From Jiella avicenniae (GTDB lineage Bacteria > Pseudomonadota > Alphaproteobacteria > Rhizobiales > Rhizobiaceae): DNA of 64,000 nucleotides. A program made the translations under genes and the position numbers. A model generated the notes under the pieces. It saw only the letters and a list, made by a program, of their open reading frames with translations, did no database searches and had not been told where the DNA came from. This document shows positions 7,220-10,782 of the stretch, one piece after another. The DNA lies in contig NZ_JAJUWU010000003.1 of NCBI RefSeq assembly GCF_021390325.1, positions 124,001-188,000 of the forward strand, in the 5' to 3' direction. How positions within the stretch are numbered: position 1 is the first letter of the stretch; each line of letters starts with the position of its first letter.

Positions 7220-7902
7220 CGCCCGGCCGGTGCGGCGCGGGAGCGGATCGCCGGCCGGCGCCAGCCGGCCCGCCCGAGGCCGCCCGCCTGCCCGTTGACG
7301 CCGGGGCGCGCGAAAACGGCCTCGCCGGCGAAAGCCGCGAAGGGATGGAGCGTCGTTTCGGCCGCCGCGCTCCACGGGGCGGGCGACGGGATGCCGGAGG
7401 CAGACCCTCCGAACTTTTTGTCTGTACGGTCCGCCTCCGGCATCCCGCGCGGCGCGCTACGGTCGCGATGCATCGCTCCGACCCGCTGCCTTTTCGGCGA
7501 CCCCGACGCTGCCGCGGCGGGGACGGGTCGTCGCGATGGCGGCTGGCGCTTCCCGGATGCCTCCGGTCAAGCGGACCGATCCGCACCCCCCGCATAGTCG
7601 AGGAGGGGCCAGCGGCGCCTCGCAACCGTCCGGGACGGCCACCCTCCGGAAGAGCGCACCGCCGCGGACACCGCCCGCCGGCCCCCGAACGATCCCGGTG
7701 ATCATTCGCGCCCGTTCCGTGGGCCGGCGGTCGGGGGATGATACGGGCGGCGCGAGGGGGTGGGGATATCTTTTTGAGCGGGCGAAATTTGCGGCTATCA
7801 TAGGCGGAATAATGCAGACAGCGTCTGGTCGCCGTGAAAGTGAACTTTCAGAGTATCGAACACCCTCAGGATTATCGTGGGAATCCTAGGGAAATTCCAG
7901 GT
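7220..7902. other. Intergenic region between dctM and the SIR2-STAND gene
   Basis: This stretch of 683 bp has no convincing gene. The reading frames here are Arg/Pro-rich and lack ribosome binding sites. It contains the perfect inverted repeat listed at 7387-7447. From about 7780 the composition shifts to lower G+C, marking the edge of the foreign segment. Small hairpins occur near 7837-7850 and 7880-7900. Confidence 0.6.
7387..7447. repeat. 15-bp perfect inverted repeat with 31-nt loop
   Basis: The arms at 7387-7401 and 7433-7447 are exact reverse complements. It lies downstream of dctM and upstream of the compositional shift. No T-run follows either arm, so it is not a canonical intrinsic terminator. 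It may stabilise the dct transcript end, or be a relic of an element. Confidence 0.6.
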
Positions 7903-10371
7903 TTATGTCGCGTATTCAGGACCATAGGCCTCTTTCCAGATCCCGTTCGTCGCGTAATTGATGACGTTCGTGGCCGCCTCCTCCAAGCGCGGACTGGGAT
8001 GCTTACGTTGCGCCACTAGAAGCTCATTCGCATACTGCTGAGCGACCTGCTTCGGCTTATCTCGTCCCAGGAATTTGTTGAGGACTGATATATGCCCCTC
8101 TGCAAGCGTAACGATTGGATAGGTATCTTCCACGCCCGATTTGCGCTGAAGCTCTCGCAACGTGGTGATCGCCTCTTCCAATAAAGGTTCTGCCTCATCC
8201 CAAGAGCCCTTATCTGCGGCAATGATCAGAAGTTGCTGCGCAAATGCATGTTCAATATGCGGTGACAAATATGCCGATCTCGCTGTTCTGAGCATCTCCA
8301 TAGCTTCTTTATGCCGATTCATCGCTCTTAACGCTAACCCGTATTGAAGCCAATACAAACCGTCGATGTGAAACTGCGTTTCAAAAGCGCTGTATACGGA
8401 AATGATTTTTTCTTCATCTCCACGAAGAATGTCTTTTACAAAGCGATGGTTGATAATGGACTTGAATACCACGCCATCCGCTTTGCCCACGTGCTTGATC
8501 ACAGGCGCATCATAATCTGCGAATGATTTCAACAGCGCGACAATGCAGTCTCGTATCATCGTCGTCGTAGCGATTTTCTCGAACAATTCCCTAATGTAGA
8601 CCGGATGCCGAGCCGCAAGCTTACCTGTATCCGCAATGACGATGCCTTCAGTATCATCCCGAAGAATGTTGATGTCCTCCTCGACACCTAATTCGAGAAG
8701 AGATTTGCCAACCAATGAAAAGCTGAGCGTTGATCGATGATTGCTAGCCAATCCAACGAGTATTAAAAATTTCCTCTGGCTTTCACCAGGCAGGTTTTGG
8801 AAATCATTCTCGATTATTTTAGTGAAACCGAGACCGGTCGTGGCTTCCATTAGCCCAATCAAAAGTTGCCTGTCGGCTTTGCGAAAGATCTCATGCGAAC
8901 GGTCGGCCGGCTTCATCTTCTCAAGGCGGGTCCACGGACCATATTTCTCCAGCCGCTGCAAGATTTTGGGAACGTCATCCTTCGTGATTTTTCTGACGGT
9001 ATATGTCTTGAAGTCCATATCGACGAATGATGCACTCACATGTCGCTTCCAAACGTTGAGCCGTTCGGAGACGACTATACATACGTTCTTAGCTTCGGCA
9101 CCAGAGAGGACTTCAGCGAGGTCTGCATGCATGTCCTGGATCTTATCGATGAAAAGGTAGAATGGCTTTGGGTTCGCGTCCTCGAGCGTTGCGATGACGT
9201 CTTTGATGTCACTGACCGCTTCCCTTAGGAAGTAGACGCTTTTACCGGAAGTTTGGCTCAGGTTGAGAGCTGTCATCATGAGCGCAGTGCTCTTCCCAGA
9301 GCCCGCCGGCCCAGTCAGAGCTATCAGCCTTTTCCCCTTGTATTCGTCCTCCACCATCCTCGAGAATGTCTCTATGAATTCGAGATGGCCCGGGATGTCA
9401 TCGACGATGTCCCGCCAGGTTGGCTTGTACCCCTTGTAAAATTCCCGAATGGCGCCGGCCGACTGCTTTTCTGACGGCTTGGGGAGGCTTTCTGAACCGA
9501 CAAGCGTCACACTATTGAGGGTTCTCTTCTGCGTGTCACTAAGCCGAATGAAACCTCGCATCTCTGGACGTCGATTGCAGGCGATATCCCATCCTGAAGG
9601 CGGCGTCGGAAACTCGCTCGACAGCCAATCTGAGAAGTCCTTCAGCCTCCCTGAGATGTGTCTTATGTTCAGCGTTTCGAGGTGATCGACATCAATCTGC
9701 GTGGCATTTGGGGTTATCGCGTATCCACGCACCGGGTTTCGTTGGTTGGTTTCCCGCATTTCGGCCATGACGTGCTGGAATAACGGTTCGTCGAGTTCGC
9801 TACCAATGAACACGAACGTGTAGTTGCTGTGGTTTTGCCCTAGCTCCTTGTACCAGATCGGCAGATTACTAGCGCCTTCGCCGTACTCACGAGGAGAGAA
9901 CACGAACCCATCCTGAGGTCGATCCGCGGATCCGTTCAATTTGATAAGTTGAACGGTGTCGTAGACAGGGCTGACCTCTTCGAGCGGCTGTTTGCGCGAA
10001 AAAACCTGAAGCTTCTGCGTCTTTGCCGCTCTAAGAGCGTTCTCCATGCTGTCGTCTATATTCAGCGTGTAGATGCGCTGCCACGGAAATTGAGCGATGA
10101 TTGTCTGCGCATCGCTGGGGGTCGTGTTGGTCAGGCGATCTTGGAAGTACCGGTGAAGGCCCGCTGCGTCCGATGCTGCTATGGTTGAGTAGACCTTTCC
10201 TAAAGTTTCGCCCCGGTACGGCTTCGATTTTAGTTCCGCCAATTCCGATGCGAGTGCACTGCCAAGCGGAAGGTTCAACCCTCTGCTATCTCGTGCATCG
10301 CAGGACGCCCCTGCGCCAAGGAGTAGCATCAACCGTCCGTTTTCATATTCCGTCCTGATCTCGGCTAGCAT
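7903..10371 (-). CDS. SIR2-STAND-TPR protein, probable anti-phage defence sensor (Avs5-like)
   Basis: This 822-residue single-gene system has three parts. (1) A SIR2-like NADase domain covers about 1-250: LLLGAGAS at 16-23 for the NAD-binding Rossmann loop and YTLNIDD at 101-107. The catalytic-His position reads KLNGS (144-148), so His is replaced by Asn. (2) A STAND/P-loop NTPase covers about 325-560: GPAGSGKST (354-362) as Walker A, FYLFID (404-409) as Walker B followed by Lys, then an SER sensor-like strand near 435. (3) A helical TPR-like C-terminus covers about 640-810 and would be the ligand sensor. This order matches SIR2-STAND (AVAST type V) defence proteins, where NAD+ is depleted on phage recognition. 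Start ATG has GGGGAG just upstream. G+C is clearly lower than both neighbours, indicating horizontal acquisition. No second defence gene is adjacent. Confidence 0.82.
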   Translation of the reverse strand: MLAEIRTEYENGRLMLLLGAGASCDARDSRGLNLPLGSALASELAELKSKPYRGETLGKVYSTIAASDAAGLHRYFQDRLTNTTPSDAQTIIAQFPWQRIYTLNIDDSMENALRAAKTQKLQVFSRKQPLEEVSPVYDTVQLIKLNGSADRPQDGFVFSPREYGEGASNLPIWYKELGQNHSNYTFVFIGSELDEPLFQHVMAEMRETNQRNPVRGYAITPNATQIDVDHLETLNIRHISGRLKDFSDWLSSEFPTPPSGWDIACNRRPEMRGFIRLSDTQKRTLNSVTLVGSESLPKPSEKQSAGAIREFYKGYKPTWRDIVDDIPGHLEFIETFSRMVEDEYKGKRLIALTGPAGSGKSTALMMTALNLSQTSGKSVYFLREAVSDIKDVIATLEDANPKPFYLFIDKIQDMHADLAEVLSGAEAKNVCIVVSERLNVWKRHVSASFVDMDFKTYTVRKITKDDVPKILQRLEKYGPWTRLEKMKPADRSHEIFRKADRQLLIGLMEATTGLGFTKIIENDFQNLPGESQRKFLILVGLASNHRSTLSFSLVGKSLLELGVEEDINILRDDTEGIVIADTGKLAARHPVYIRELFEKIATTTMIRDCIVALLKSFADYDAPVIKHVGKADGVVFKSIINHRFVKDILRGDEEKIISVYSAFETQFHIDGLYWLQYGLALRAMNRHKEAMEMLRTARSAYLSPHIEHAFAQQLLIIAADKGSWDEAEPLLEEAITTLRELQRKSGVEDTYPIVTLAEGHISVLNKFLGRDKPKQVAQQYANELLVAQRKHPSPRLEEAATNVINYATNGIWKEAYGPEYAT

Positions 10372-10782
10372 TCCGCTCCCCCGCAGCTCGATTTGTGTTC
10401 GTTCAGATTACAACCAAGATTGCATTGAGCAAGCCTGCTGAATCGCTCTGAGATTTCGCGATCTAATTGAAGAATCACACGATGCCCTGCATGGCCACCA
10501 TGTGAGTCTCCTTCGAAAACAAATTTCGACCAACGGACGGAGGTGGCGACAGCAATCGAAAGACTTGGAAAAAAGGCGGTGAGCGCTTCGCTCCCACGAC
10601 TTTGTGTCCCTGCATTAGATCCACCTTTTTGGGCGCAATCCCGCAGACCATCCCGCGCCCTCCTCCTCCCTTTCCTCGCCCCACCACCGTACCCATTCCC
10701 CCAAACTCCCCTACATCCTCTCCCGGCGGCGCCACCTCCGCCCCATCCCCGCCCCACCAGCCCGAGAGACCCGCCGCAGCCG
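10372..10782. other. Promoter region of SIR2-STAND gene plus C-rich tract before the antiporter
   Basis: This 411-bp gap is divergent. The part at 10372-10550 is A/T-richer and should hold the promoter of the minus-strand SIR2-STAND gene. The part from about 10640 to 10780 is an unusually pyrimidine-rich (mostly C) tract on the plus strand. No gene was recognised. Confidence 0.6.

What the first reader, a model, noticed from the sequence alone, without database searches (positions are those of the whole stretch)
7903..10371. Compositionally foreign SIR2-STAND-TPR gene: candidate single-gene anti-phage system
The 822-residue product joins a SIR2-like domain (GAGAS at 19-23), a P-loop NTPase (Walker A GPAGSGKST at 354-362) and a TPR-like C-terminus. 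It sits alone in a lower-G+C island between a TRAP operon and an antiporter gene. Known SIR2-STAND proteins (Avs5/AVAST type V) trigger NAD+ depletion on phage protein recognition. The domain order is seen; the defence role is inference from that family. The TPR sensor end is where a new phage trigger would be read.
Basis: partly seen in the sequence, partly recalled or inferred. Interest (0 to 1): 0.8.

Follow-up and report, generated by a model that had tools for sequence, protein, structure and literature searches.

The report
Avs5-type single-gene phage-defence protein
This lone, horizontally acquired gene most likely encodes a bacterial immune protein of the known Avs5 family, which senses a phage protein and destroys the cell's NAD+; the kind is known, but this branch falls below the standard family models and sits in an insertion hotspot.

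Summary
An 822-aa ORF (7903-10371, minus strand) joins SIR2_2, nSTAND_NTPase5 and a TPR-like C-terminus, with GC3 0.59 against 0.90-0.94 in four neighbours. It is a horizontally acquired single gene. In the 9 genus genomes with both flanks readable, the TRAP-antiporter interval is 211 bp (two genomes) or holds different cargo; only this genome has a SIR2-STAND gene there. It scores far below the NCBIfam Avs5 cut-off and weakly with PADLOC Avs5, but the best Foldseek matches are EfAvs5 (9jap) and the AVAST5 filament (9nc9). I assembled a clade of 29 proteins, this one included (the others 29-60% identical to it). All 29 have Asn (N146) where most SIR2 domains have catalytic His. A 2026 Mol Cell paper reports this NG motif in PaAvs5-1 and shows that immunity needs it. 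Of twelve published PaAvs5-1 positions, 11 are identical here (the other is Asp for Glu), with similar spacing. Best reading: a PaAvs5-1-like (NG) Avs5, whose NAD+ hydrolase switches on when its C-terminal part recognises a phage protein. Activity, trigger and protection are inferred. New member of a known kind; the hotspot, with poorly described cassettes in sister genomes, is the more open lead.

The parts
7903..10371 (-). SIR2-nSTAND5-TPR-like gene, 822 aa, Avs5-type (PaAvs5-1-like NG branch)
9607..10371 (-). SIR2 effector domain, residues 1-255; G19, G21, N104, D106, N146-G147 (NG in place of HG) and E195 invariant in 29 of 29 clade members
9934..9936 (-). codon of N146, at the place of the catalytic His of ThsA/DSR2/KomC-type SIR2 domains
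9043..9447 (-). nSTAND_NTPase5 core, residues 309-443; Walker A 354-361 (K360), Walker B-like FYLFID ending at D409, R437
8572..9042 (-). C-terminal part of the STAND module, residues 444-600 (mostly helical in the model; boundaries set by eye)
7906..8571 (-). helical / TPR-like C-terminus, residues 601-822, inferred sensor; Y660, W674, Q676 match the conserved pivot residues published for PaAvs5-1
   Evidence: PMC12931631 section 13
10376..10381 (-). Shine-Dalgarno-like GGGGAG, 4 nt before the ATG
   Evidence: sequence printed, read by eye
7304..7775 (.). copy of a dispersed repeat of this genus (no gene assigned), at the left edge of the insert; also at this site in three sister genomes
7810..10667 (.). 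approximate insert: no match to the sister intervals between these points (left edge 7773-7809, right edge 10667-10690 depending on the genome compared)

Best explanation
The gene encodes an Avs5 (AVAST type V) protein of the PaAvs5-1-like branch. The C-terminal helical repeats recognise a protein made by an infecting phage. NTP-bound STAND modules then assemble, as in the solved EfAvs5 helix. The clustered SIR2 domains hydrolyse NAD+ through N104, with N146 taking the place of the usual His, and infection aborts. Shown here: domain order, fold match, residue fingerprint, purifying selection in close pairs of relatives, and mobility largely as a single gene. Inferred from characterised homologues: NAD+ hydrolysis, filament assembly, phage trigger and protection.
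For: Foldseek best hits are 9jap (EfAvs5 SIR2-STAND helix, E 1.2e-26), 9nc9 (AVAST5 filament, 1e-18) and human SAMD9 (9zjs), a similarity also reported for PaAvs5 in PMC12931631. The profile of nine relatives finds 9jap over both the SIR2 and the STAND parts. A passage of PMC12700824 says filament formation is a prerequisite of activity in ThsA and Avs5. Twelve published PaAvs5-1 positions were compared in 65 proteins: the window protein matches 11 of 12 residues (D409 for Glu410) with a summed spacing difference of 8; clade median 11 (5-14), 36 other family members median 33 (10-65). Only clade members combine Asn at this site with a difference of 14 or less; the closest other Asn-bearing sequence is at 18. 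Asn is present in 29 of 29 clade members and the clade is monophyletic (support 0.95). dN/dS is about 0.08-0.11 in the three pairs with dS about 1 or less (computed). It has foreign composition and an occupied hotspot. No partner gene recurs beside relatives. Related pairs share DNA over little more than the gene itself in three of four comparisons.
Against: PADLOC Avs5 reaches only E 0.035, behind ThsA, mad8, mad3 and Dsr2, and NCBIfam Avs5 only 18.1 bits against a cut-off of 1000. TM-scores to the Avs5 filaments are low (0.28-0.29, rmsd 27-33 A), so the match rests on 3Di/sequence alignment of domains, not on one rigid superposition; SAMD9 superposes better (0.45-0.46). PaAvs5-1 itself could not be fetched, so its place in the clade is by published positions only; two His-bearing non-members (L047, L124) have equally small spacing differences (10 and 11), and R437 is not Arg in 11 of 29 clade members. 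The paper assigns nSTAND3 to PaAvs5, whereas this protein passes the cut-off for nSTAND5 and not nSTAND3. I saw no other defence gene beside it in the window, though most of the window was not scanned with defence models, and no phage test exists.
Confidence: 0.85

Rival explanations
1. It is an NTP-gated SIR2 defence protein of the same build, but its main target is plasmids or other mobile DNA rather than phages, or its trigger is a host damage signal.
For: No trigger is known for this protein; integrases are the commonest family near relatives (Phage_integrase in 7 of 91 near neighbours), so competition between mobile elements is possible.
Against: Characterised Avs5 proteins from three clades act against phages, and PaAvs5-1 to -3 respond to a phage-encoded protein (PMC12931631, passages and sections).
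Confidence: 0.08
2. The SIR2 domain is a pseudo-enzyme or has changed chemistry because the catalytic His is Asn, so the protein works by NAD+ binding, ADP-ribosyl transfer or sequestration rather than hydrolysis.
For: Asn at 146 is fixed in 29 of 29 clade members. The PDB molecule name of 9xvc, 'KomC(H146N), a SIR2-domain NADase', shows that others made the same change in a related SIR2 (its purpose was not read).
Against: In PaAvs5-1 the NG motif goes with phage-triggered NAD+ loss and ADP-ribose gain, and Ala or Gln at that Asn abolishes immunity (PMC12931631 passages). N104, D106, E195 and the GxG of the NAD site are invariant here.
Confidence: 0.05
3. A decayed or non-functional passenger gene.
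For: Frames look interrupted in some relatives (L096, L098, L100, L142; G563).
Against: The window ORF is intact, keeps the invariant clade residues, has a Shine-Dalgarno-like site, and close pairs of relatives are under purifying selection.
Confidence: 0.02

Closest known systems
PaAvs5-1 (Avs5 clade 1, P. aeruginosa; Muralidharan et al. 2026, PMC12931631)
   Same: SIR2-STAND-repeat order; NG in place of HG; N, D, E of the SIR2 site, Walker A, Walker B-like acid, R437/R438 and the Y-W-Q pivot at similar spacing; 822 aa against about 828 (the highest residue named in the paper's deletions).
EfAvs5 (PDB 9jap, SIR2-STAND helix; its paper is not held, title seen only in a reference list)
   Same: Best fold and profile match over SIR2 and STAND; also has an NG ('HING') motif in the printed alignment.
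   Different: 16% identity in the structural alignment; belongs to another Avs5 clade (clade 3 in PMC12931631).
AVAST5 filament (PDB 9nc9/9nah) and the NCBIfam/PADLOC Avs5 models
   Same: Second-best fold match.
   Different: 13-14% identity; family models score far below threshold or weakly on this protein.
ThsA, DSR2, KomC
   Same: SIR2 domain of the same superfamily.
   Different: Sequence matches to these cover the SIR2 part only. ThsA and the KomBC SIR2 protein keep His in the printed alignments, and DSR2 has H171 by its entry titles.
Human SAMD9
   Same: Foldseek rank 3, TM 0.46; the same similarity is reported for PaAvs5.
   Different: A longer vertebrate protein, 12-14% identity.

Membership tests
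Avs5 (AVAST type V) | N-terminal SIR2-like effector domain | tested here: met
   PF13289 44.9 bits over cut-off 24.5; 29 of 29 clade members match at E<=1e-4
Avs5 (AVAST type V) | central STAND P-loop NTPase | tested here: met
   PF25199 90.3 bits over cut-off 34; nSTAND3 22.5 bits, below its 27.2 cut-off; 29 of 29 match PF25199, 11 of 29 match nSTAND3 at E<=1e-4
Avs5 (AVAST type V) | C-terminal helical repeats (TPR/Sel1/PPR) | tested here: met
   AF2 model helical through 809; Pfam TPR hits are sub-threshold
Avs5 (AVAST type V) | fold most similar to solved Avs5 proteins | tested here: met
   9jap EfAvs5 rank 1, 9nc9 AVAST5 rank 2 by E-value; TM-scores low at 0.29 and below that of SAMD9 (0.46)
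Avs5 (AVAST type V) | curated Avs5 family models (NCBIfam NF041814, PADLOC PDLC02170) | tested here: not met
   18.1 bits against 1000; PADLOC E 0.035. Of 29 clade members 18 match NF041814 at E<=0.001, best 5.7e-15, and 7 match PADLOC Avs5 at E<=0.001. That the models are built round EcAvs5-like sequences is my inference; the wider family of PMC12931631 has clades at about 20% identity, so failure does not exclude it
PaAvs5-1-like branch | NG motif plus the 12 published functional positions and spacing | tested here: met
   11 of 12 residues, spacing difference 8; Asn in 29 of 29
PaAvs5-1-like branch | PaAvs5-1 itself groups with this clade in a tree | not testable with these tools
   its sequence was not found in what I searched; 1 of 398 genomes of the P. 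flavescens genus showed a clade member (a lower bound)
Avs5 (AVAST type V) | NAD+ hydrolysis on recognition of a phage protein | not testable with these tools
   needs experiment
DSR1/DSR2 | SIR2 fused to a long helical region without P-loop NTPase (recalled); DSR model hit | tested here: not met
   strong STAND hit; Dsr2 E 0.022 PADLOC, 11.2 bits against 1400 NCBIfam
Thoeris ThsA | SIR2 plus SLOG/STALD sensor domain with a ThsB partner (recalled) | tested here: not met
   PADLOC ThsA match covers residues 72-240 only; no second gene recognised in the insert

The most novel reading that the evidence does not exclude
The TRAP-antiporter interval is a defence hotspot of this genus, next to a dispersed repeat. 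It trades single immune cassettes between strains, and two of its other cargoes are undescribed defence systems: dNK-Ham1-SIR2 in G492, and carbamoyltransferase-ASCH plus a 384-aa orphan in G493. The NG-type SIR2 clade found here would be a widespread, separately evolving class of NAD+-cleaving immune STAND proteins that current models overlook.
Probability: 0.25. Interest if true: 0.6.

Novelty: new member of a known kind. Interest (0 to 1): 0.35.

Why it matters
It shows that the NG form of the SIR2 site, reported as surprising in PaAvs5-1, is fixed in a 29-member clade whose record titles (classes recalled) name alpha-, beta- and gammaproteobacteria and, for two assembled genomes, Desulfovibrio and Verrucomicrobia; Asn also appears elsewhere in the tree. 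It shows that the standard Avs5 models do not call this clade's window member. The locus gives a ready comparison: nine genomes of one genus with the same site empty or filled with different cargo.

Tried and rejected
Thoeris and DSR membership: rejected, sequence matches are limited to the SIR2 domain. A conserved partner gene: rejected. Among 207 neighbouring ORFs (up to 4 each side) of 28 loci the groups shared between loci were one of 5, one of 3 and three of 2. Of the 207, 91 (positions +-1 and +-2, at least 110 aa) were scanned: Pfam gave Phage_integrase in 7, the commonest of 103 families, of which 25 are shown. PADLOC at E<=1e-15 gave 90 models; each of the 25 shown is matched by one neighbour, among them type II restriction and methylase, Hhe, PDC-S05, PDC-S37 and PDC-M65B models. 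These ORFs were picked by length, not by a gene caller, and no control set of random loci was run. Structured RNA at the junction: only mir-373, E 0.023, 28.1 bits against a gathering score of 69. The left element as a unique attachment site: rejected, it is a dispersed repeat. Promoter and terminator scans gave no more than shuffles. Phage carriage: no hit in the phage collection for the window protein or for L107; L162-L164 lie on IMG/VR contigs, and only L162's neighbours were scanned (two integrases). E. coli genomes: none with the Citrobacter relative as DNA query. Two scans with the single window protein found nothing. The viral fold library gave only weak matches, mostly AAA-type ATPases (best E 2.6e-6). 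Paper searches for the 9jap code and for carbamoyltransferase+ASCH+anti-phage gave none; this is one search each in an open-licence library.

Rows dropped: L128, L142, L145 and L146 were left out of the tree. Of 71 loci, five without a hit (L134, L140, L159, L160, L161) and five with an open frame under 700 aa (L096, L098, L100, L152, L154) were left out of the 62-row alignment. Thirteen plasmid records not fetched or not used in the tree (15 found; L040-L044 used, L045 dropped). Relatives were found through two peptide patterns, so the H/N counts are not a random sample. In the large genome searches only part of the first-look candidates was scored (5, 2), so those prevalence counts are lower bounds. 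Nine pairs were given to the dN/dS script; five had saturated dS and L113/L129 had dS 2.36, so only three are quoted.

Full report
Observation. The ORF at 7903-10371 on the minus strand encodes 822 residues. Pfam finds SIR2_2 at 99-238 and nSTAND_NTPase5 at 309-443, both over cut-off; TPR models hit within 673-740 below cut-off. GC is 0.513 and GC3 0.593 against GC3 0.898-0.942 in four neighbours. The neighbours are DctP, DctQ and DctM on one side and a Na_H_Exchanger-family gene and Pgk on the other. The AF2 model built from 42 sequences has mean pLDDT 88.5 and pTM 0.86 and is helical to about residue 809.

What it resembles. PADLOC gives ThsA matches to the SIR2 domain first, then mad8 and mad3 matches to the P-loop, and Avs5 only at E 0.035. 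NCBIfam Avs5 scores 18.1 bits against a cut-off of 1000. Sequence search of the PDB with a profile of nine relatives puts 9jap first, aligned over both the SIR2 and the STAND parts. Foldseek names 9jap as the EfAvs5 (SIR2-STAND) helix (E 1.2e-26), then come the AVAST5 filament 9nc9, human SAMD9, DSR2 and ThsA. The TM-scores to the filaments are low (0.28-0.29), probably because the predicted monomer and the filament differ in domain arrangement (inference).

The family. A first scan of genomes with the single protein found nothing. A two-sequence alignment with a 30% identical relative found 66 loci in the species-genome collection and five in viral contigs. The closest intact relatives are Chelativorans salis (60%) and Chelativorans alearense (49%); a 62% match, L098, lies in a broken frame. 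Twenty-nine proteins including the window's form a clade of 815-868 aa at 29% identity or more to it, monophyletic in a 65-sequence tree with support 0.95. All 29 match both Pfam domains. One protein at 29% identity, L119, has His and is the sister of the clade in that tree.

The Asn. ThsA, the KomBC SIR2 protein and many relatives have a His in a motif like KLHG, and DSR2 has H171 by its entry titles. At this place all 29 clade members have Asn, while N104, D106, E195, two Gly of GAGxS and the Walker lysine are also invariant. Over 65 family members there are 35 Asn and 30 His, with 4 Fitch changes against a mean of 21.7 (minimum 15) in 500 label shuffles. So the exchange is old in this clade and appears again in L044, L125 and the L126/L130/L136/L137 group. 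I first took this as a sign of a dead or altered enzyme. PMC12931631 says otherwise (sections 9, 12, 13, 17 and 33 read, other parts as passages). PaAvs5-1 carries NG instead of HG; Ala or Gln there abolishes immunity and His keeps part of it. NG and HG are about equally frequent among Avs5 homologues, and infected cells lose NAD+ and gain ADP-ribose.

Fingerprint test. PaAvs5-1 was not available as sequence. I compared 12 published positions (Gly24, Asn110, Asp112, Asn153, Glu202, Gly357, Lys363, Glu410, Arg438, Tyr661, Trp675, Gln677) with aligned positions in 65 proteins. The window protein has 11 of 12 residues (Asp409 for Glu410) and a summed spacing difference of 8. The clade has median 11 (5-14); 36 others have median 33 (10-65). 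Two His-bearing others (L047, L124) are as close in spacing, so spacing alone is not decisive; Asn plus a difference of 14 or less is met only by clade members. In the 29 clade members Arg at 437 is kept in 18, Trp at 674 in 19, Tyr at 660 in 28 and Gln at 676 in 29.

Inheritance. The genus search covered 10 genomes; both flanks lie in the stretch taken for 9 (for G122 the contig ends). The DctM-antiporter interval measures 211 bp in G494 and G495, 1265 in G490, 2040 in G192, 3234 in G020, 3611 here, 4038 in G491, 4418 in G493 and 10047 in G492. A profile search of all 10 genomes at E<=1e-8 finds one other family member, a distant His-type gene elsewhere in G192. DNA comparison puts the insert at about 7773-7809 to 10667-10690. 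In 28 of 28 clade relatives outside the window the gene has lower GC than the rest of its locus. In L120/L129, L109/L110 and L113/L129 the DNA match covers the gene and little else; L133/L102, from Pseudomonas and an Alcaligenaceae bacterium, match at 88.5% over 3.6 kb. dN/dS in L133/L102, L109/L110 and L120/L129 is about 0.11, 0.09 and 0.08. The gene therefore travels mostly alone and is under purifying selection. It is sparse. In the class, 3 of 385 genomes gave a match at E<=1e-30: this one, a split match in G563 and a partial match in G532. In the genus of P. flavescens 1 of 398 did. These are lower bounds.

Mechanism. Best reading: C-terminal recognition of a phage protein, NTP-dependent STAND assembly, NAD+ hydrolysis by SIR2, abortive infection. 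Domain order, fold and residues are shown; activity, assembly, trigger and protection are inferred from Avs5 homologues. Within the clade, residues 661-720 are among the most conserved (mean entropy 1.32 and 1.49 per 30-residue block), and the linker 271-300 (2.48) and residues 781-822 (2.38 and 2.92) are the most variable. A new trigger specificity, if any, would more likely lie in those variable parts than in the TPR-like stretch as a whole (inference).

Surroundings. Other cargoes at the site include DUF5131 plus a partner, both matching PADLOC candidates PDC-M30/M41 (G491); dNK, Ham1 and SIR2 genes with transposase genes (G492); and a low-GC3 carbamoyltransferase-ASCH gene with a 384-aa orphan (G493), neither matching PADLOC. 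In G490, G020 and G192 the ORFs tested are a sulfotransferase, a Rieske oxygenase and a cytochrome b561; six ORFs of these three sites gave one weak partial PADLOC match (CARF3, 29.1 bits, L091). So three of seven filled sites hold genes with clear matches to defence models, counting this one. The defence-hotspot reading is suggestive only.

Verdict. A real, intact, horizontally acquired Avs5-type gene of the PaAvs5-1-like NG branch: a new member of a known kind.

Noticed in passing
window 7304-7775; G000:C46:589-1060: Dispersed repeat of about 470 bp with no gene assigned; 2 to 19 matching pieces per genome in 9 of 10 genus genomes, a second own copy 96% identical. It borders the variable insert here and at the same site in G491, G492 and G493.
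   Followed up: partly
L093 5013-6759 (minus): dNK, Ham1-family and short SIR2_2 genes in a row within the same hotspot in G492, with transposase genes (Transposase_mut, IS1595-type, rve) around; possible nucleotide-pool or NAD-linked defence cassette.
   Followed up: partly
L090 2393-5652 (plus): Carbamoyltransferase with a C-terminal ASCH domain plus a 384-aa protein with no Pfam or PADLOC hit at the thresholds used, GC3 0.48 and 0.41, in the same hotspot in G493.
   Followed up: partly
L089 3187-5263 (minus): DUF5131 protein and a 422-aa partner matching PADLOC candidate systems PDC-M30/M41 in the hotspot of G491.
   Followed up: no
L047 7509-9959 (minus): A distant His-type SIR2-STAND gene elsewhere in congener G192, the only other family member found in the genus.
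   Followed up: no
L096, L098, L100, L142; G563:C108: Relatives whose reading frames look interrupted, so the gene may be lost repeatedly; assembly errors were not excluded.
   Followed up: no
L162, L163, L164: Full-length clade members (34-38%) on IMG/VR viral contigs; L162 has two phage-integrase genes upstream. The other two contexts were not examined.
   Followed up: partly
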